This document shows, piece after piece, positions 5,703 to 63,873 of a DNA stretch of 64,000 nucleotides. Each line of letters begins with the position of its first letter. Position 1 is the stretch's first letter. A program made the position numbers and the translations under genes. The DNA lies in assembly GCF_024757985.1 (NCBI RefSeq), contig NZ_CP103289.1:682001-746000 (forward strand), read 5' to 3'. The DNA comes from Cellulomonas sp. NS3 (lineage in GTDB: Bacteria; Actinomycetota; Actinomycetes; Actinomycetales; Cellulomonadaceae). The notes beneath the pieces were generated by a model that saw nothing but the letters and a program-made list of their open reading frames with translations, had not been told where the DNA came from and did not search any database.

Positions 5703-8700
5703 ATGTCCCTGCAGGTCGCCGCACCCCTGTCCGCCACCGACGCCGGCCCGGTCACCGGACGCACCCTCGAGATCGAGGGCCGGCCGTTCTACCAGATCAC
5801 CGCGTACGACCAGATCCCGCCGTTCTTCATGACGCTCGTCGGCGCGAGCGACCTGTGGGTCTTCATCTCGAGCAGCGGCGGCCTCACCGCCGGCCGCGTC
5901 GAGGCCGAGCACGCGCTGTTCCCGTACTACACCGAGGACAAGGTCGCCGAGGGCGCCGGCCGCACCGGCGGGCTCACGCTGCTGCGCGTCACCGGCGCCG
6001 ACGGGGGCACGACCGTCTGGCAGCCCTTCGCCGAGACGCGCCCGGGGGACCCCGCGGCCCGGCGCACGCTGTCCAAGGACTACCTCGGCACGACCCTCGT
6101 CTTCGAGGAGGTCCGCCCCGACCTCGGCCTGCGCGTGCGCGTCACGTGGCAGACCAGCGCCCGCTACGGCGTCGTGCGCACGGGCGAGCTCACGTCCACC
6201 TCCGACGAGCCGGTCGACGTCGAGCTGCTCGACGGGTTCGTCAACCTGCTGCCCGCGGGCGCGACCGTCCAGGTCCAGAACGAGCTCAGCTCGCTGCTCG
6301 ACGCGTACAAGCGCAGCGAGGTCGACGGTGCGACGGGCCTCGGGATCCTGTACCTGAACTCGAAGCTCACCGACAAGTCCGAGCCGAGCGAGTCGCTGCG
6401 CGCGAACGTCGCGTGGTCCCTCGGGCTCGAGGCCGCCGACCGGCTCGTCTCGACGCGCCAGGTCCGGGCCTTCGCCGCCGGGCAGCCCGTGCACGGCGAG
6501 ATCGACGTGCGCGGCGAGCGAGGCGCCTACCTCGTGCGGACGGGGTTCCGGCTCTCGCCGGGGGAGACGCGCCGCTGGCAGGTCGTCGCCGACGTCGAGC
6601 ACAGCGCCGCCGACGTCGTCGCGCTGCGCACCGAGCTCGCCGAGCCGGCCGCCGTCGCGCAGCGTCTCGCGGCCGACGTCGAGGAGACCCGCACCGCGCT
6701 CGAGGCGCTCCTCGCGACGGCCGACGCCGCGCAGCTCACGGGCGACGAGCTCGCCGCCGCCCACCACGCAGCGAACGTCCTGTTCAACACGATGCGCGGC
6801 GGGGTGCCCGTGGACGGCTACACGGCCGAGGCGGAGGACGTGCGCCGGTTCGTCGCCGAGCGCAGCCCGCGGACCGCCGAGCGCTGCGCGGACCTGCTCG
6901 CCGGGCTGCCCGAGCGCTTCGGCATCGACACGCTCGTCGCGCTCGCGGACGAGCACGGCGACGCGGACCTCGGGCGGCTCGCGCGCGAGTACCTGCCGCT
7001 CATGTTCAGCCGCCGCCACGGCGACCCGAGCCGCCCGTGGAACAAGTTCCGGATCGCGCTGCGCGACGCCGACGGGCGCACGCGCGTCGACTTCCAGGGC
7101 AACTGGCGCGACATCTTCCAGAACTGGGAGGCGCTCGCCTGGTCGTTCCCGGAGTACGTCGAGTCGATGGTCACGGTGTTCCTCGACGCGACCACCGCGG
7201 ACGGCTACAACCCGTACCGGATCTCCCGCCAGGGCATCGACTGGGAGGTCCCCGAGCCCGAGAACCCGTGGGCCAACATCGGGTACTGGAGCGACCACCA
7301 GATCGTCTACCTGCTCAAGCTGCTGGAGACGTCCCGGCGCTTCCACCCCGGGCGGCTCGACGCGCTCGTCGACCGGGCCGTCTTCACGCACGCCGACGTG
7401 CCGTACCGGATCGCGTCGTACGCGAAGACCCTCGAGGACCCGTACGACACGATCGCGTTCGACGACGCGGCGCAGGCGGCCATCGAGCGCCGGGTCGAGC
7501 GCGAGGGTGCGGACGGGCGGCTCGTGCACGGGCCCGACGGCGAGCTCGTGCGCGTGACGCTCGCGGAGAAGCTGCTGCTGCTGCTGGCCGCGAAGCTCGT
7601 CAACCTCGTGCCCGAGGGCGGGATCTGGATGAACACCCAGCGGCCCGAGTGGAACGACGCGAACAACGCGCTCGTCGGGCGCGGGCTCTCGGTCGTGACG
7701 CTCGCCTACGTGCGGCGCTACCTCGACGTGGTCCGCGACCTGCTCGTCGACGACGTCGTCGTGACCACCGAGCTGCGCCAGCTGCTCCGGGACGTGACCG
7801 ACGCGCTCGGCCGCCACGCGGGCGGCACCGAGACCGGCTTCGACGACGTGGCGCGCCTCGCGGTCATGGACGAGCTCGGCGCGGCGGGCACCGCCTACCG
7901 GTCGCGCGTCTACGACGGGTTCAGCGGCGCCGTGACCACGGTCGCCGCGGCGGACGTGACCGCGTTCCTCGACGTCGCGCAGCGCTACGTCGACTCCGGG
8001 CTGCGGGCCAACCGGCGCGACGACGCGCTGTCCCACTCCTACAACCTGCTCGACCTGCGGCCGGACGGCGCCGGGGTGCGCCGGCTGAGCGAGATGCTCG
8101 AGGGCCAGGTCGCGGTGCTGTCGTCCGGGGTGCTGAGCCCGGCCGAGGCGGTCGAGCTGCTCGACGGCCTGCGGCGGTCCGCGCTGTACCGCGCGGACCA
8201 GCACAGCTACATCCTCTACCCCGACAAGGACCTGCCGAGCTTCCTCGACCGGAACACCGTGACCGCGGCCGACGCCGCCCGGGTGCCGCTCGTCGAGCGG
8301 CTCGTCGCCGCCGGGGACCGGTCGGTCGTGCTGCGCGATGTGGCGGGCGACGTGCACTTCGCCCCGGACGTCCACAACGCGGGTGACGTCGCGGCGGCGC
8401 TCGACCGGGTCGGCGTCGAGGTGTCCGACGAGGACCGTGCCGCGCTGCTCGGGCTGTTCGAGGACGTGTTCCACCACGCCGAGTTCACGGGCCGGTCCGG
8501 GACCTTCTTCGCGTACGAGGGGCTCGGCTCGATCTACTGGCACATGGTCTCCAAGCTGTTGCTCGCGGTGCAGGAGAACCACGAGCGCGCGGTCACGGAG
8601 GGCGCGGACCCGGGCGTCGTCCGGCGGCTCGCCGAGATCTACGAGGACGTGCGCCGCGGGCTCGGGTACTGCAAGACCCCCGAGGTCTACGGCGCGTTCC

Positions 8701-58733: not shown

Positions 58734-58775
58734 GGTCGGGGGGCGGGATTCGAACCCACGACCTCTTCGTCCCGA
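58734..58775 (-). pseudogene. 3' half of a tRNA-Pro gene (attachment-site remnant)
   Basis: On the minus strand the sequence reads TCGGGACGAAGAGG, then a T-arm GTGGGTTCGAATCCCGC and an acceptor end CCCCCGACC. These are the anticodon loop, 3' anticodon stem, variable loop, T-arm and 3' end of an actinobacterial tRNA-Pro(CGG)-like gene. The 5' half (D-arm and 5' acceptor strand) is missing, and upstream DNA on that strand is unrelated. Such displaced 3' tRNA halves mark one end of integrated elements. The acceptor end is one base short, so it is not functional. Confidence 0.7.
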
Positions 58776-59523
58776 CCGGGTCCGCGGCCCTGTCTCGCAG
58801 GGTCCGTACGGGCTGCGTGAGTTGCGATCGTCGGCTCAGTTTCGGTTCGCGTCGCCGCGGTGGTGGCGCGAGTAGTCCCCCTTGTCGTGAATCAGAGTCG
58901 GACGTCGTTCGGATACCCGCATGCCTTTGTCGCCGTGTGGTCGGGTCAAGGGGGGGCCGCCTTCGGCCATCGCGTAGCGACGCGGAGCGCCCTTGACGCG
59001 ACTGCGCGGTGGCAAAGACCGTCGTGGAGCCGATCGCCGTCTGTGGTGAGGAGTCGACGAGCTGCGAGCCAGCTGCGTCTCCGTCGGGATGGCGCGTGGG
59101 TGGGGTGGGGTGCGGCGGGGTGCGCGGAGGGAGCGCAGCGACCGCAGCGCGGGGCTCCTGCCGCGGGGCCTCGACCTACCCACGCGGCGCCGCGCGGAGC
59201 GCGGCCTTGAGTCAGTAAGGAACTTCCTCCCCGGGCAGGTCGGATTGAGAGGTCGAATCACAATCGGGTCCGTGGCCTGGCTCAGCGCCTGGCTTAGCGC
59301 AGGGGCCAGGCAGCCTAGCGGGGGTGTAGTCAACGTCCGGGGACCACGCGGCACGCGCCTCTTGCTTAGCTGCCCTCCGAAGCGGCGTGGTGCCTGGCTC
59401 GGCTCGTGCGGCGTATCTCTCGTGGAGGGTGGCCCAACGACATGCCGGGCACCCCGTTGCAGAGGATTTGCCCGCCTCTCGGTGCAAGCGCTGCTAAGTT
59501 CACCGGAGCGAAAGGGGGCGAGC
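58776..59523. other. Non-coding stretch at the island edge
   Basis: About 750 bp between the tRNA fragment and the first cargo gene hold frames on both strands that are Arg/Pro/Ser-rich and unlike real proteins. There is a short tandem duplication near CCTGGCTCAGCG/CCTGGCTTAGCG (59277-59300). I see no RNA or regulatory motif that can be named. Confidence 0.45.
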
Positions 59524-60117
59524 ATGCTCGGCACCGAGCGCAGTCATCGGCAGGTCATCTACCTCACCGGTGCTCCTGCCACGGGCAAGACGACTACTGC
59601 AACCCTGTTGGGGGGAATGGTCGACGCAAAGGTTCTCAGCTATGGCGCACTGCTGACCGAGCGAACGGCGAGCGTGGCGTCGCAGAGCGAACTCAGGGAA
59701 CGCTCGGCCCAAGTCATCGAAGAGCGCGATGTGAAGGACCTAGACGCTGAGATTGCGGCGCTCATTCGCGAATCTACGGCACCATGCATCATCGACTCGC
59801 ACGCCGTGACGAAGGAAGCGTGGGGGTTCAGAGCCGTACCGTACAGCCACGAGACGATCAGGCAGCTGGGCATTACGTCGATTGTCGTACTCTACGCCTC
59901 ACCGCAGGAGATTGGGCGGCGGATTGGCAGCGACTCGCAAGGGCGGCCTCTCCCCGACGAGCTCGACCTTCGGATTCACCAGGACCTGCAGATGAACTTG
60001 GCGCTAACGTACGCGCACACATGCCATGTACCGGCGTACTTCGTGAAGTCGGAGGGAGAGCCCGCGGCGGTGGCCAGGCAAGTGGCCAGGGCCTGTGGTT
60101 TCGAGGATCGGGGTTGA
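59524..60117 (+). CDS. P-loop (AAA/adenylate-kinase-like) NTPase
   Basis: The 197-residue protein has Walker A YLTGAPATGKTTTATLL (residues 13-29), a Walker-B-like CIIDSHAV near 88-95, a LID-like segment with ASPQEIGRRIGSDSQGRPLPDE and a C-terminal helix. It resembles small AAA_17/AAA_18-type nucleoside or nucleotide kinases. ATG at 59524 follows AAAGGGGG. Its stop lies inside the start region of the next gene. The substrate is unknown; it is the first gene of the cargo trio. Confidence 0.75.
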   Translation: MLGTERSHRQVIYLTGAPATGKTTTATLLGGMVDAKVLSYGALLTERTASVASQSELRERSAQVIEERDVKDLDAEIAALIRESTAPCIIDSHAVTKEAWGFRAVPYSHETIRQLGITSIVVLYASPQEIGRRIGSDSQGRPLPDELDLRIHQDLQMNLALTYAHTCHVPAYFVKSEGEPAAVARQVARACGFEDRG

Positions 60118-60952
60118 GTTGACCACTAACGGCGAGATCGACCTCAAGGCGGCAGTGAACGCTATTTCTGACGTGATCACGAATCGCCCGCGCCCGCTGC
60201 GCGAATTCGACCAAATTCACATGAAGGCCGGCGACATGGTGATGCAGGCCGAGTTCGTTGCACGGTGGGCGGCGGGCAAGCGGCTCGTCTTCATTGGGGA
60301 CGGAGATGCGATCAGCGTCTGCGTGGCCTACCTGTGTGAGCGAGGCATTTTTCCCTACGGCCCCACGCAGATACTGGTGCTCGATTTCGACGAGCGCGTG
60401 ATCGGGGCTGTGAAAAGATTTGCGGATAAGGAAAGAATACCGACGCTCGATGCAACCCTCTACAACTGTATTGACGAGCTCCCGCCGTTGAGCGACTTTG
60501 ACGCCTTCTACACGAACCCGCCGTGGGGTGCGAGCAACGGTGGTACCAGCGTTCACTTGTTTGCGTACCGCGGGATGCAAGCGACAAACTTCGCCGGGGA
60601 AGGACTCGTCGTCATAGCCGACGACGAGGAGTTGGATTGGGCGCAGGCTGTCCTCGGTGCGACCCAGCGGTTCGCGTCGGACCAAGGATTTTATGTGAAG
60701 CGTATGACGCCTCAACTGCATGCCTACCACTTGGACGACGCGCCCGACCTACTTTCTTGCAATCTGGTGTTTCGCGCCTTGCCGCGCTCGGCGCGCCCGG
60801 AGTCGCAGCCGCTGGTGGTGGATGCCGCGTTGCTCGAGAACTTCTACGGTGCCGGAAAGGCGCCGCGCGTACACTACGTGCGTGAACTGAAGCGGCTCGA
60901 CTACGGTAAGGCCCACCAGGACGAGTACAGGTTGGAGTTGCTTGATGGGTAG
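60095..60952 (+). CDS. BpsA-like (DUF43) methyltransferase-fold protein
   Basis: The protein (285 residues from GTG 60095, or 277 from TTG 60119) has motif I KRLVFIGDGDAISVCVAYL, a post-I acidic strand ILVLDFDERVI, the catalytic TNPPWGASNGG and a long C-terminal domain. The pattern is that of the bis-aminopropyl spermidine synthase (PF01861) family, which transfers aminopropyl or related groups. The usual N-terminal winged helix is absent. Overlap with the upstream kinase indicates coupling, and it overlaps the downstream gene by eight bases. The substrate in this context is unknown. Confidence 0.7.
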   Translation: MVSRIGVELTTNGEIDLKAAVNAISDVITNRPRPLREFDQIHMKAGDMVMQAEFVARWAAGKRLVFIGDGDAISVCVAYLCERGIFPYGPTQILVLDFDERVIGAVKRFADKERIPTLDATLYNCIDELPPLSDFDAFYTNPPWGASNGGTSVHLFAYRGMQATNFAGEGLVVIADDEELDWAQAVLGATQRFASDQGFYVKRMTPQLHAYHLDDAPDLLSCNLVFRALPRSARPESQPLVVDAALLENFYGAGKAPRVHYVRELKRLDYGKAHQDEYRLELLDG

Positions 60953-61523
60953 CATCCCTTGGGCGGAGGCGCAGGATCCCCGCACCGGCATTTTGTTCAT
61001 GAAGGTCGGGACTCACGCGAATGAGTCGCTTGACGAGATCATTACGCGCAAGCAGAAAGAGATCGAGCGTGCCGGCTTTGCCCTGTGGGGCTACGGGGGC
61101 AACACGTGCCACCCGACGTCGATGGTACAGCCGTTCGCTCAGTCGCTCGCTTCTCGGGGATCCCAGCTTGTGCTTGCGATGAAGCCCATGGAGTCGAAGC
61201 ACTTTGCGGAGCCCCTGCGTGCAAGCGAGTACTCCGTCGATGGGCTGGAGTGGGAAGCGATTCCGGAAGCCGTCAACGCGCTGGGGTCTCGGTATGCGCT
61301 TTGGATTGATAGCCTCGAAGAAGCGGACCTAGAGCTACCCCTTGACATGACTAAGGTGGGCCTAGGGCCGAGTGCTGGCCGCGCTGGAGACCGGTACGTG
61401 AAGGGGCGCGTGGATAAGGCCTGCCTGGAGTACGATCCCACGCTCATGAGCGAGGGTACCCAGGTAGCGTCGATCGGCTTGGTTGCCCATATGGCTGAGC
61501 CCTACGCGGTGTTCCTCCGCTAG
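60945..61523 (+). CDS. Unknown protein with GT/RK/WGYGGN signature
   Basis: The 192-residue protein has ILFMKVGTHANESLDEIITRK, then ALWGYGGNTCHP, with an alpha/beta pattern and a C-terminal SIGLVAHMAEPYAVFL. I recognise no characterised family. ATG at 60945 lies inside the end of the BpsA-like gene with GGAG (60934-60937) upstream, so the three cargo genes are probably one coupled operon. The N-terminal signature recurs in the protein encoded at 63226-63873. Confidence 0.75.
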   Translation: MGSIPWAEAQDPRTGILFMKVGTHANESLDEIITRKQKEIERAGFALWGYGGNTCHPTSMVQPFAQSLASRGSQLVLAMKPMESKHFAEPLRASEYSVDGLEWEAIPEAVNALGSRYALWIDSLEEADLELPLDMTKVGLGPSAGRAGDRYVKGRVDKACLEYDPTLMSEGTQVASIGLVAHMAEPYAVFLR

Positions 61524-61533
61524 TCCGGAGTGT

Positions 61534-62184
61534 TTATCTCATAAGCACAACGGGACACGACTTGCGCAAGTGCTCGATGTAGGAAGTAAGTCCCGTCGCC
61601 ACGTCGTCAAGTGTGACTACATCTTGGTTGCACGCGAACGCTAGAGCAACGGCGAGGTCGGCGGCGCGGTCAGTGCAAACCCCTTGCCTGCACGCGTCGA
61701 CGCCGATTTCTTGCGCGAGTCGGAGGATAATCTGCTCGAAGCAGATGGCGACGCCGGTGATTAGAGCGGCGTCGAGCACCAGCGGACCGACCACTTCGAG
61801 GGCGCCTAGGGCCCTTTTGTCGCCTGTAAGGAAGTGAGCGAAGCGGCGGTCCGCCACGATGGCGATGAGCTGGCTCTCTCCTGTGTCGAGAGGCAAGCCG
61901 AGCTCTTGGGCACGATCCTCCAGGGCGGCCGCCACGGCAAGCTCGGATGAACTTGGCTCTAACAGTTCCGCTGTCGCCATGAAGTCCTGGAACTGTGCCA
62001 GCGCTGCTGCGCGGGTTTCGATCGGCGTCTTCTTCTGCAATCGCGCGCCGACGACGAATGGTGCCGCGCCAAGGACCCCGGCGGCCTCTGGCCCGATCAG
62101 CCCTTGGAAGGACTCGGAGGTTAGGAATAGGTATCTCGACAGCTTGATCAGGACATCATTGTCGACGGCGCTTCGCTGGGCCAA
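61534..62184 (-). CDS. PIN-domain nuclease-like protein
   Basis: The 216-residue protein has a PIN-like acidic set: SAVDNDVLIKLSRY near 5-18 (first Asp), LDTGESQLIAIVADRRF (Glu/Asp) and FLTGDKRALGALE (Asp). PIN nucleases cleave RNA, often as toxins. TTG at 62184 follows the ImmA/IrrE stop by one base with GGGGAAG upstream, so it is coupled to it. The long C-terminal half is not part of a minimal PIN domain. Confidence 0.7.
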   Translation of the reverse strand: MAQRSAVDNDVLIKLSRYLFLTSESFQGLIGPEAAGVLGAAPFVVGARLQKKTPIETRAAALAQFQDFMATAELLEPSSSELAVAAALEDRAQELGLPLDTGESQLIAIVADRRFAHFLTGDKRALGALEVVGPLVLDAALITGVAICFEQIILRLAQEIGVDACRQGVCTDRAADLAVALAFACNQDVVTLDDVATGLTSYIEHLRKSCPVVLMR

Positions 62185-62185
62185 G

Positions 62186-63157
62186 TCACTTCCCCATGAC
62201 TGTATCGAGGTATTCCTGCTGGTCCATGCCGAGCGCATCCCAATGCAACATCTTGCGAGCGAGTCGGTTGATCGCCCCACCGACGTCACCCTCGCCGAGG
62301 ATTTTCAGCGCGGCCGTTCCTCGCGCCCACTCGTTGTGCTGGCGCGCGAAGATGAGCGCAATGGTCCCTGGGTCGATGCCCCATTCCCTAGAGTAGTCGA
62401 CTGCAGCGGTCGCTAGCTGAGCCGGATTGAAATCACCCGGAGGGCGGGTGATGTCCAATTCAGTCCTGCCCGTTAGGAGCTGTAGCGCGAAGGCATTTGC
62501 TGCCTCCTCCTCGTCATCCGGCTGCTCCCTGGCAGGATCCTCAATGTCGAGCAAGCTGGATGAGGTCCCGGTGTGGCCCAGGAATATGTGGCCCAGTTCG
62601 TGGGCGACGGTGAAGGCCGCCTTTGCAGGGAACCGCGTGCTTTCGCCGATGATAATGGCGAAACCGTCGTGCCATTGCGCGCAAACAGCGTGCATGCGCT
62701 TCTGGGGGAGAGGAAAGACAAGCGTCTGCACAACTGGTATACCACAAGCCCAGCTCAGCGTTAGGACGTCCCGTAGCGAGTACCCGGCCAGAAGTCGGCG
62801 AAGGTCAAGGGCGCCTTGCCTTGCTACTGGTACTCGTGGTCGAGGCGCACCGGCGGCGAGGATCGACGCCAGTGAAACCGCGAAGGAGCTGAGGATGTCC
62901 TGCTCAGTGGCTGATGTGCTTCCGAGGTTCTTGAAGCGGGCTGTGTCCTTCCAAGCGAACACGGGCTCTGTGTCGCCGAGCAAGGAGGATGGCTTGATCC
63001 CTAGCCGCCTTGCGATCGTCAGTTTCAACTCGGCGCGCGCGGAGATTGAGGCCTCCGCAGCGGCGCTCCACCACTCAGGCCAGACGGCGTCTATTGCTAG
63101 GTCCGAATAGCCGACCGAGTGGAGCGTTTGTCGGAGCGAGTTCTCGTTCTCGTTGAT
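62186..63157 (-). CDS. ImmA/IrrE-family metallopeptidase, apparent ATC start
   Basis: The protein (323 residues) has an N-terminal helical part (SLRQTLHSVGYSDLAIDAVW, PEWWSAAAEASISARAELKL, ARRLGIKPSSLLGD) and a C-terminal zinc peptidase with AHELGHIFLGH and a downstream EEEAANAFALQLL. Homologous-looking sequence continues upstream of the first standard start (TTG 63028) for 43 codons to ATC at 63157, which has GGGAGGTG five bases upstream. No ATG, GTG or TTG in frame lies in that extension. It probably controls the PIN protein or a neighbour by proteolysis, which is inference. Confidence 0.75.
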   Translation of the reverse strand: MNENENSLRQTLHSVGYSDLAIDAVWPEWWSAAAEASISARAELKLTIARRLGIKPSSLLGDTEPVFAWKDTARFKNLGSTSATEQDILSSFAVSLASILAAGAPRPRVPVARQGALDLRRLLAGYSLRDVLTLSWACGIPVVQTLVFPLPQKRMHAVCAQWHDGFAIIIGESTRFPAKAAFTVAHELGHIFLGHTGTSSSLLDIEDPAREQPDDEEEAANAFALQLLTGRTELDITRPPGDFNPAQLATAAVDYSREWGIDPGTIALIFARQHNEWARGTAALKILGEGDVGGAINRLARKMLHWDALGMDQQEYLDTVMGK

Positions 63158-63225: not shown

Positions 63226-63873
63226 ATGGCTGTGGAGGATATTGCGCCCCCGTCTTGCTTCTGTTGGACCAAGTTCGGCACTGAGGCCGGCGACACGATA
63301 GATGTCATACGTGCGCGGAAGGAGAGTGAGCGACAAGCTGGAGGCGGCCTCTTCTACTGGGGTATTGGCAACAGTATCGCCCCGTCGATCCAGGCGCTCG
63401 TAGAGACTGCGTCTAATCCAGAGGTGCTATTCACGCCGATGCTGTCGAAGCCGGCTGTCGGGGATGTCGCCCCAGAGCGCGTCGTCTCGTGGCGCTCCGG
63501 GTTGGGTATCGATGGGCGGCCTTATTCGCTGCGGAGCGGCGTCGTCACTAGTAAGGCCAGTGCCGCTTCCTCTCCCAAGAGGCACTATGCGTTGGTGTGC
63601 TACTCGGTCGATCCGCTCGATGTAGACGGCTTTCCGGTCAACTTTGCCGCGGAGTCTGTAGTGAACCTCCGTTCTGGTGCTCCAGTGGGTTCTTCGCAAG
63701 TGACATCGGTGGTGCGCTATGTCGATGATGCGCCGGCAGCGAGGCGGCGGTACACCGTCGCGTTCCGTGCGACGCTCGTTGCCCCGTATTTTGTCACGCT
63801 GCTTGACGCCGGCACCGCCGTGCAGGGGACGAAGGTTAGTGCGGACTACGAGCAGGAACTTCTCTGGGCTTAG
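63226..63873 (+). CDS. Unknown protein with GT/RK/WGIGN signature
   Basis: The 215-residue protein has CWTKFGTEAGDTIDVIRARK, then LFYWGIGNSIAPSIQAL, PEVLFTPMLSKP and GVVTSKA. The N-terminal signature (K.GT.A..(S/T)(L/I)D.I..RK..E....G....WG.GN) recurs in the protein at 60945-61523, so both may share a domain. No characterised family is recognised. ATG at 63226 is divergent from the metallopeptidase gene. Confidence 0.7.
   Translation: MAVEDIAPPSCFCWTKFGTEAGDTIDVIRARKESERQAGGGLFYWGIGNSIAPSIQALVETASNPEVLFTPMLSKPAVGDVAPERVVSWRSGLGIDGRPYSLRSGVVTSKASAASSPKRHYALVCYSVDPLDVDGFPVNFAAESVVNLRSGAPVGSSQVTSVVRYVDDAPAARRRYTVAFRATLVAPYFVTLLDAGTAVQGTKVSADYEQELLWA

What the first reader, a model, noticed from the sequence alone, without database searches (positions are those of the whole stretch)
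59524..61523. Candidate undescribed three-gene system: P-loop kinase, BpsA-like enzyme and WGYGGN protein
Three genes overlap or abut (60095/60117 and 60945/60952), sit on a low-GC island at a tRNA-Pro remnant, and combine a nucleotide-kinase-like P-loop (GAPATGKTTT), a PF01861-like transferase fold with TNPPWGASNGG, and an unrecognised protein. The composition of enzymes suggests chemical modification of a small molecule, nucleotide or nucleic acid. The company (PIN nuclease, ImmA/IrrE peptidase) suggests conflict or defence. I know of no named defence system with this trio.
Basis: partly seen in the sequence, partly recalled or inferred. Interest (0 to 1): 0.82.

Follow-up and report, generated by a model that had tools for sequence, protein, structure and literature searches.

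The report
Mobile five-gene modification-and-RNase cassette
The three genes are part of a compact, mobile set of five tightly linked genes (plus an optional kinase), found in unrelated bacteria, that looks like an undescribed molecular conflict system built around a methyltransferase-like enzyme, two unknown reader-like proteins, a predicted RNA-cutting enzyme and a switch protease.

Summary
The kinase-like (K), PF01861 (B) and WGYGGN (W1) genes lie in a 6.6-kb low-GC island bounded by a 41-nt repeat of a tRNA-Pro gene. The conserved unit is not the trio. It is B-W1, the convergent PIN-like (P) and ImmA/IrrE (I) genes, and a second W-family gene (W2). Of 70 genome loci with at least 4.5 kb held downstream of B, 70 carry all five in that order; K is in 33. 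The full unit is seen in four phyla, on plasmids and in two contigs classed as viral.

B is not a normal branched-polyamine synthase: two catalytic acids are replaced in every member (GDGD and NPPW, 87 of 87), suggesting an amino-methyltransferase. W1 and W2 are homologous, match no Pfam family as groups, and have confident models whose recurrent but sub-threshold structural matches are YTH/EVE modified-base readers. My best reading is a modification-gated RNase system of toxin-antitoxin/defence type, parallel to published PIN-GNAT-EVE-ASCH-AAA_17 operons. Mechanism and defence role are inferred. My searches found no publication describing the cassette.

The parts
58738..58778 (-). left copy of a 41-nt direct repeat, a 3' piece of tRNA-Pro (probable attachment site); the right copy lies in an intact tRNA-Pro 1.3 kb beyond the window end
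59524..60117 (+). K: adenylate-kinase-like P-loop protein, accessory (33 of 70 loci)
   Evidence: AAA_17 9.3e-13; profile vs adenylate kinase 7owe 7.6e-16; P-loop 38 of 38
60095..60952 (+). B: PF01861 relative, predicted class I amino-methyltransferase-like enzyme (GDGD, NPPW); start may be TTG 60119
60945..61523 (+). W1: WGYGGN protein, no Pfam family; model pLDDT 90.5, weak YTH/EVE-like structural matches
61534..62184 (-). P: predicted PIN nuclease, acids DND/GES/TGDK kept; TTG start likely
   Evidence: phrog_15597 2.2e-10; PIN in 2 of 18 members, best 9.7e-4; alignment; start
62186..63157 (-). I: ImmA/IrrE-family Zn peptidase (HExxH) with a conserved N-terminal region; no ATG/GTG/TTG before that region, so ATC 63157 is the likely start
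   Evidence: Peptidase_M78 6.8e-7; CapP-like; start
63226..63873 (+). W2: second W-family protein (WGIGN), divergent from I; model pLDDT 91.2, weak YTH-like structural matches
   Evidence: homology to W1: hhalign 97.7%, E 2.4e-12

Best explanation
It is a mobile, self-contained conflict cassette that couples a nucleic-acid or nucleotide modification to a PIN RNase. Proposed working: (1) B uses SAM to alkylate, most likely methylate, an exocyclic amine, the N6 of adenine being the first guess. (2) W1, encoded overlapping B, and W2 are PUA/YTH/EVE-like readers that sense the modified or unmodified state. (4) I, an ImmA/IrrE-CapP-like protease with a conserved N-terminal region and, in some loci, an adjacent small HTH protein, keeps P and the cassette silent and releases them on stress such as single-stranded DNA. 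(5) K, when present, phosphorylates a nucleotide linked to the modification. Shown: gene content, order, conservation, motif state, W1-W2 homology, mobile settings.
For: Order B>W1>P<I, then W2 on either strand, in 70 of 70 loci with enough sequence; paired divergence of all six genes (r 0.62-0.86, no permutation of 500 as high), which shared inheritance alone would also give. B: GDGD and NPPW in 87 of 87; BpsA's Asp159 becomes Gly and Asp225 becomes Asn (residue roles from PMC12979288, passages); weak match to PADLOC's mad2, 5.7e-5 to 2.2e-7 in three B proteins. P keeps the PIN acid pattern; I keeps HExxH in 80 of 81 and best resembles CapP. W models: of the 50 PDB rows shown, 36 are titled YTH for W1, plus THYN1 and 2eve (EVE by recall); 31 are titled YTH for W2, plus two chains of 4r3h (YTHDC1 by recall). 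Published parallel: PIN-GNAT-EVE with ASCH and AAA_17 (PMC7641849, sections 10 and 19 read). A divergent B-W1 pair just downstream of HipA (L068).
Against: No Foldseek hit reaches E 0.001 for W1 or W2. The top hit of each is not a YTH domain (T4 gp6; a type 9 translocon chain). Probabilities in the rows shown are at most 0.33, rmsd is often over 10, many YTH rows are near-copies of a few proteins, and E-values resemble those of unrelated hits in the viral library. Profile comparison of W1 and W2 with an eight-sequence EVE alignment gives nothing. Pfam families are shared by at most 2 of 74 W1 and 2 of 73 W2 members (best E 0.026 and 0.0061), and the two consensus sequences match none up to E 10. 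Pfam calls PIN in only 2 of 18 P proteins, and the P profile finds no PIN structure in the PDB. K is missing from about half of the loci. I in this genome lacks a usual start codon, so this copy may be weak. W2 also occurs without B.
Confidence: 0.42

Rival explanations
1. An elaborated type II-like toxin-antitoxin (addiction) cassette of mobile elements. P is the toxin, I (with or without the small HTH) the regulator, and B-W1-W2 neutralise or repair the damage; its selected role is element maintenance, not phage defence.
For: HTH-COG2856 proteins with PIN toxins were predicted as three-component TA (PMC2701414, passages). The cassette lies on plasmids, in a tRNA island, near TniB-type transposon genes and recombinases in some loci, and in two contigs classed as viral. 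A second B-W1 pair sits just downstream of HipA, a classic toxin.
Against: Five conserved genes on two strands are more than TA needs; a separate small HTH, the usual antitoxin type, is seen in only 10 of 87 loci.
Confidence: 0.27
2. A small-molecule pathway: K phosphorylates and B alkylates (methyl or aminopropyl) a nucleotide-like metabolite that poisons phage replication or signals, W1 and W2 bind the molecule, and PIN and protease are downstream switches.
For: K matches adenylate kinases along its length; B is related to an aminopropyltransferase; W domains could bind small ligands.
Against: K is absent from 37 of 70 complete loci, so a kinase step by K cannot be essential. B has lost Asp159, which positions the aminopropyl group in BpsA.
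Confidence: 0.17
3. Ordinary polyamine metabolism: B is a branched-chain polyamine synthase and its neighbours are incidental.
For: Annotation 'bis-aminopropyl spermidine synthase family protein' in three plasmid records (the fourth, says 'putative methyltransferase'); PF01861 over cut-off.
Against: Both catalytic acids replaced in 87 of 87; no N-terminal BpsA part; fixed linkage to P, I, W1 and W2; no match in the 58 other relatives searched. Most named hosts are mesophiles (recalled).
Confidence: 0.04

Closest known systems
(PIN)-GNAT-EVE operons with ASCH and AAA_17 (Bell, Wolf and Koonin 2020, PMC7641849; after Iyer et al. as cited there)
   Same: PIN nuclease, a transferase, two reader-type proteins, an optional AAA_17-family P-loop protein, HTH in some; mobile; predicted TA/defence
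   Different: Homology of K to that AAA_17 was not tested.
HTH-COG2856 (ImmA/IrrE) with PIN: three-component TA predicted by Makarova et al. 2009 (PMC2701414)
   Same: Zn peptidase adjacent to a PIN gene, small HTH in some loci, mobile settings
   Different: Here the pair is fixed in a larger unit with B, W1 and W2
BpsA, branched-chain polyamine synthase (PF01861; structures 5xnc, 6j27)
   Same: Homologous catalytic domain, 22-212 of B
   Different: GDDD to GDGD, DPP to NPPW, no N-terminal part, linked to the cassette in the loci seen
CapH-CapP switch of CBASS
   Same: I's best PDB and PADLOC matches are CapP (7t5t E 0.0043; capP 1.5e-10); a small HTH directly upstream of I in 10 of 87 loci
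   Different: No CBASS cyclase or effector match in the cassette; match limited to the peptidase domain
YTH / EVE modified-base readers
   Same: Most frequent, sub-threshold structural matches of both W models; similar element order at the N-terminus (comparison by recall)
   Different: No sequence-profile match; extra C-terminal strands; different conserved motif (WGxG)
MADS (mad2, mad8 models in PADLOC)
   Same: B resembles mad2 over the SAM/NPPW region; one K (L054) resembles mad8 weakly
   Different: Single-domain resemblances only; no other mad model matched among the 16 proteins scanned

Membership tests
BpsA (branched-chain polyamine synthase) | PF01861 domain | tested here: met
   E 6.6e-14, 52.2 bits against cut-off 27
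BpsA (branched-chain polyamine synthase) | GDDD motif with Asp159 that orients the dcSAM aminopropyl group | tested here: not met
   GDGD in 87 of 87 B proteins; GDDD in L120-L122 and L125-L128, GDHD in L129-L130; alignment
BpsA (branched-chain polyamine synthase) | Asp225 (DPP) near the amine nucleophile | tested here: not met
   NPPW in 87 of 87; DPPE or DPPY in the nine readable PF01861 relatives
BpsA (branched-chain polyamine synthase) | N-terminal part of about 130 residues | tested here: not met
   B aligns from about residue 131 of the 371-aa chain 5xnc and has only about 20-30 residues before it
(PIN)-GNAT-EVE-ASCH-AAA_17 operon | GNAT fused to EVE | tested here: not met
   no GNAT or EVE match for the six window proteins up to E 1
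(PIN)-GNAT-EVE-ASCH-AAA_17 operon | PIN domain and AAA_17 protein present | tested here: met
   AAA_17 9.3e-13; PIN by motifs and 2 of 18 members; K is in 33 of 70 loci only
EVE/YTH reader | sequence-profile match | tested here: not met
EVE/YTH reader | PUA/YTH-like fold | tested here: inconclusive
   recurrent but sub-threshold Foldseek hits for both models
EVE/YTH reader | binding of a modified base in an aromatic pocket | not testable with these tools
   needs structure and binding assay
HTH-COG2856 with PIN, predicted three-component TA | HExxH Zn peptidase next to a PIN gene | tested here: met
   P then I in order in all 70 complete loci; HExxH..H 80 of 81; in L043 I lies in two frames
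HTH-COG2856 with PIN, predicted three-component TA | toxicity of PIN and control by an HTH antitoxin | not testable with these tools
   no experiment possible
CBASS CapH-CapP | CD-NTase operon | tested here: not met
   no CD-NTase-type match for the six window proteins in PADLOC or Pfam; apart from recombinases and the small HTH no neighbour family is in more than 5 of 87 loci
Adenylate kinase (archaeal type) | P-loop and full-length profile match | tested here: met
   7.6e-16 over nearly the full profile; window K alone is below the NCBIfam cut-off (51.6 against 155 bits)
Adenylate kinase (archaeal type) | AMP phosphorylation | not testable with these tools
   needs assay

The most novel reading that the evidence does not exclude
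A previously unknown bacterial writer-reader-executioner system: B installs an N-alkyl mark on RNA or DNA, two YTH-like proteins of a new family read it, and a PIN RNase gated by a CapP-like protease destroys RNA when the mark is missing or foreign. Phage-borne stand-alone W2 proteins would then be counter-measures.
Probability: 0.25. Interest if true: 0.87.

Novelty: new variant of a known kind. Interest (0 to 1): 0.68.

Why it matters
A five-gene unit kept in the same order in four phyla, with two protein families that match no Pfam model and an enzyme that databases probably name wrongly, is a sharply defined target. The annotation matters too: 'bis-aminopropyl spermidine synthase family protein' is given in plasmid records to proteins that lack two of BpsA's catalytic acids.

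Tried and rejected
Three-gene system: rejected, since K is in 33 of 70 complete loci (one a fragment, L021) while P, I and W2 are in 70 of 70. Polyamine synthesis: rejected on catalytic residues. Alternative gene in K's place in K-less loci: looked for by clustering and by eye, no recurrent family found. Phage hypermodification cassette: B has no match in 50,697 phage records and in viral contigs only two loci, both cassette copies; K has no confirmed relative in viral contigs. Sequence support for EVE homology: none (a first attempt, used the wrong strand for six of eight loci and is void). Transfer between phyla from the B tree: not shown, one actinobacterial clade is not rejected (p-AU 0.266, 13 rows against 70). 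Integrase next to the tRNA: ORF L116:6370-6912 looked integrase-like by eye, but Pfam gives nothing. PIN-GNAT-EVE comparison: two EVE regions taken for it (L118, L119) were not of that type by eye, so homology of K with its AAA_17 stays untested. Structural search of W2 in viral models: nothing useful. Rows dropped: L123 and L124 (badly cut) from the PF01861 comparison; L002-L005 from the tree; ten of 80 genome loci lack 4.5 kb downstream and are left out of the 70 (misses there: W1 2, P 3, I 4, W2 6). The scan found 121 relatives and kept 80; 41 were not seen. The Chloroflexota locus (L022) is cut after B, so B is in five phyla but the full unit in four; the Acidobacteriota and Myxococcota loci are metagenome bins. 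Literature searches without a description of the cassette: (20 of 35 papers listed; titles and abstract starts only); some searches gave background papers. Passages only were seen of PMC2701414, PMC12979288, PMC11090510, PMC10853773 and PMC10904395; of PMC7641849 passages and two sections. The library lacks most subscription journals and bioRxiv.

Full report
Observation. The three ORFs, their overlaps and motifs are as described. W1 matches no family up to E 1 in four libraries. The GC content drops from about 75% to about 61% at the start of the cluster. A 41-nt direct repeat (95%) joins window 58738-58778 with an intact tRNA-Pro(CGG) 6,585 bp further on, outside the window, so the cassette is the main content of a 6.6-kb tRNA island.

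The unit is larger than the trio. Plasmid copies from Rhizobium, Agrobacterium and Sinorhizobium showed K-B-W1 facing a 'hypothetical' gene and an ImmA/IrrE gene, followed by another W-like gene. These are P, I and W2, all present in the window too. Pseudomonas koreensis has the same genes in another order, with its W2 shortened. W2 (63226-63873) is a homologue of W1: BLASTP E 1e-6 for the window pair, profile comparison 97.7% and E 2.4e-12.

Co-occurrence. A scan of the genome collection (84,980 species by its description) with B found 121 relatives, of which 80 loci were kept; the viral collection gave two more. HMMs built iteratively from the six proteins were run on the ORFs of 87 loci, window and four plasmids included. 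Of the 80 genome loci, 70 hold at least 4.5 kb downstream of B, and all 70 carry W1, P, I and W2 in the order B>W1>P<I<, with W2 on either strand. In all 80 the counts are W1 78, P 77, I 76, W2 74, K 34; every core miss falls in a locus cut short. K is in 33 of the 70, once (L021) as a 63-aa fragment. It stands upstream of B in 26 and downstream in 8 of its 34 hits. B occurs in Pseudomonadota, Actinomycetota, Acidobacteriota, Myxococcota and Chloroflexota; the full unit in the first four, since the one Chloroflexota contig ends after B. The six genes diverge together (r 0.62-0.86; no permutation of 500 as high in any of 15 pairs), which common descent alone would also give. W1 and K occur in five plasmid records each, the same five that carry B over at least 80% of the query.

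Mobility and patchiness. B is in 1 of 59 relatives, W1 in 1 of 346 genomes of the phylum, W2 in 1 of 246; the one is the window's genome each time. Copies lie on plasmids, in a tRNA island and in two contigs classed as viral, probably prophages. One ORF family with a Pfam tyrosine integrase lies near 12 of 87 loci, one with a serine recombinase near 10, one with TniB near 5 (families; one member of each identified by Pfam). The B tree follows host phyla in part and does not reject one actinobacterial clade, so the element has mobile settings but frequent transfer between phyla is not shown.

What B is. B matches PF01861 and the catalytic half of BpsA. In T. kodakarensis BpsA, Asp159 of GDDD orients the aminopropyl group and Asp225 lies near the amine (PMC12979288, passages). 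Counting along the alignment with 5xnc, and assuming a 20-residue tag, these fall on the Gly of GDGD and the Asn of NPPW. GDGD and NPPW are in 87 of 87 B proteins; the nine readable PF01861 relatives of the window's phylum have GD(D/H)D and DPP. The change restores a GxG motif I and gives the (N/D)PP(Y/W) motif of amino-methyltransferases (family knowledge, recalled). PADLOC's nearest model is mad2 (5.7e-5 for the window, 1.3e-6 and 2.2e-7 for two others). I infer an N-alkyltransferase, most likely methyl.

What W1 and W2 are. AlphaFold2 models from 74 and 73 sequences are confident (pLDDT 90.5 and 91.2). No structural match passes E 0.001, and the top hit of each is not a YTH domain. Among the 50 PDB rows shown, W1 has 36 titled YTH plus THYN1 and 2eve (EVE family by recall); W2 has 31 titled YTH plus two chains of 4r3h (YTHDC1 by recall); many rows are near-copies of a few proteins. 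Sequence searches give no support, and a viral-library search gives unrelated hits at similar E-values.

P, I and K. P keeps PIN-type acids (DND-type 80 of 83, GES-type 79 of 83, TGDK-type 83 of 83), with Pfam PIN in 2 of 18 members and no PIN hit in the PDB. I keeps HExxH (80 of 81) and best resembles CapP. The CapP-CapH and PprI-DdrO pairs are activated by single-stranded DNA and act by repressor cleavage (PMC10904395, abstract and passages). A small protein family, HTH-like by Pfam in the one member tested, lies directly upstream of I on its strand in 10 of 87 loci. K is an archaeal-type adenylate kinase relative.

Side evidence. In L068 a second B-W1 pair follows a HipA gene on the same strand. 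W2-like proteins occur without B in the stretches held: in a phage contig with head, SSB-like and Sak4-like proteins (L111), in two more contigs classed as viral (L106, L107), in two Burkholderia records opened of four, in Methylomonas, and in a Rhizobium phaseoli plasmid next to Shedu, AbiGi and Eco57I-type genes. Of four plasmid cassettes opened, L002 has annotated Abi genes about 5 kb away, L003 an AAA ATPase-helicase pair and L004 an ABC-three component system (both defence-linked by recall); L005 has none. No matched control was run.

Interpretation. The closest published plan is the (PIN)-GNAT-EVE operon with ASCH and AAA_17, predicted as TA/defence (PMC7641849, sections 10 and 19 read): PIN, a transferase, two PUA-like proteins, AAA_17, sometimes HTH. 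Ours has a similar list of roles filled by different families, plus an integral ImmA/IrrE protease. B and W1 are the most conserved members (mean identity 63% and 57%) and P the least (34%), as expected if a writer is constrained and an effector diversifies. I commit to a modification-gated PIN RNase system at 0.42, with addiction cassette and small-molecule pathway as rivals.

Verdict. Real, in mobile settings, widely conserved and, as far as the searches reach, undescribed as a unit; new variant of a known kind; mechanism open.

Noticed in passing
L068:5512-8248 (Sphingopyxis MAG): A second, divergent B-W1 pair directly downstream of a HipA gene, beside the main cassette: B-W1 with another toxin type.
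   Followed up: partly
L071:6865-8578 (Mesorhizobium amorphae): A second B gene followed by W1 pieces in two frames upstream of the main cassette.
   Followed up: partly
L040:7541-8353 (Terriglobia MAG): An extra divergent PF01861 protein with TNPPYGSKNGG next to the cassette; a wider B family exists.
   Followed up: partly
L111:5578-6693 and 6715-7527: A phage contig carries a W2 protein followed by an ORF that matches only the first 57 positions of I.
   Followed up: partly
L112:8003-9681 (Rhizobium phaseoli plasmid): W2-like gene in an apparent operon with an unknown 329-aa protein in an island with Shedu, AbiGi, TcmP and Eco57I-type genes.
   Followed up: partly
window 63155-63157: The ImmA/IrrE gene has no ATG/GTG/TTG before its conserved N-terminal region; ATC behind GGAGG is the likely start. 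Of 82 I ORFs examined only L042 shares this.
   Followed up: partly
L048, L054, L066, L072, between W1 and P: About 0.75-1.6 kb of extra sequence between W1 and P; a shared ORF family lies there in L066 and L072.
   Followed up: no
L126-L130: A group of PF01861 proteins in other genomes of the phylum with GDDD or GDHD and DPPY, in open frames of 468-859 aa; function not looked at.
   Followed up: no
L116:6370-6912 (window coordinates 64370-64912, beyond the window): ORF near the intact tRNA-Pro that looks like an integrase piece by eye; no Pfam match.
   Followed up: partly
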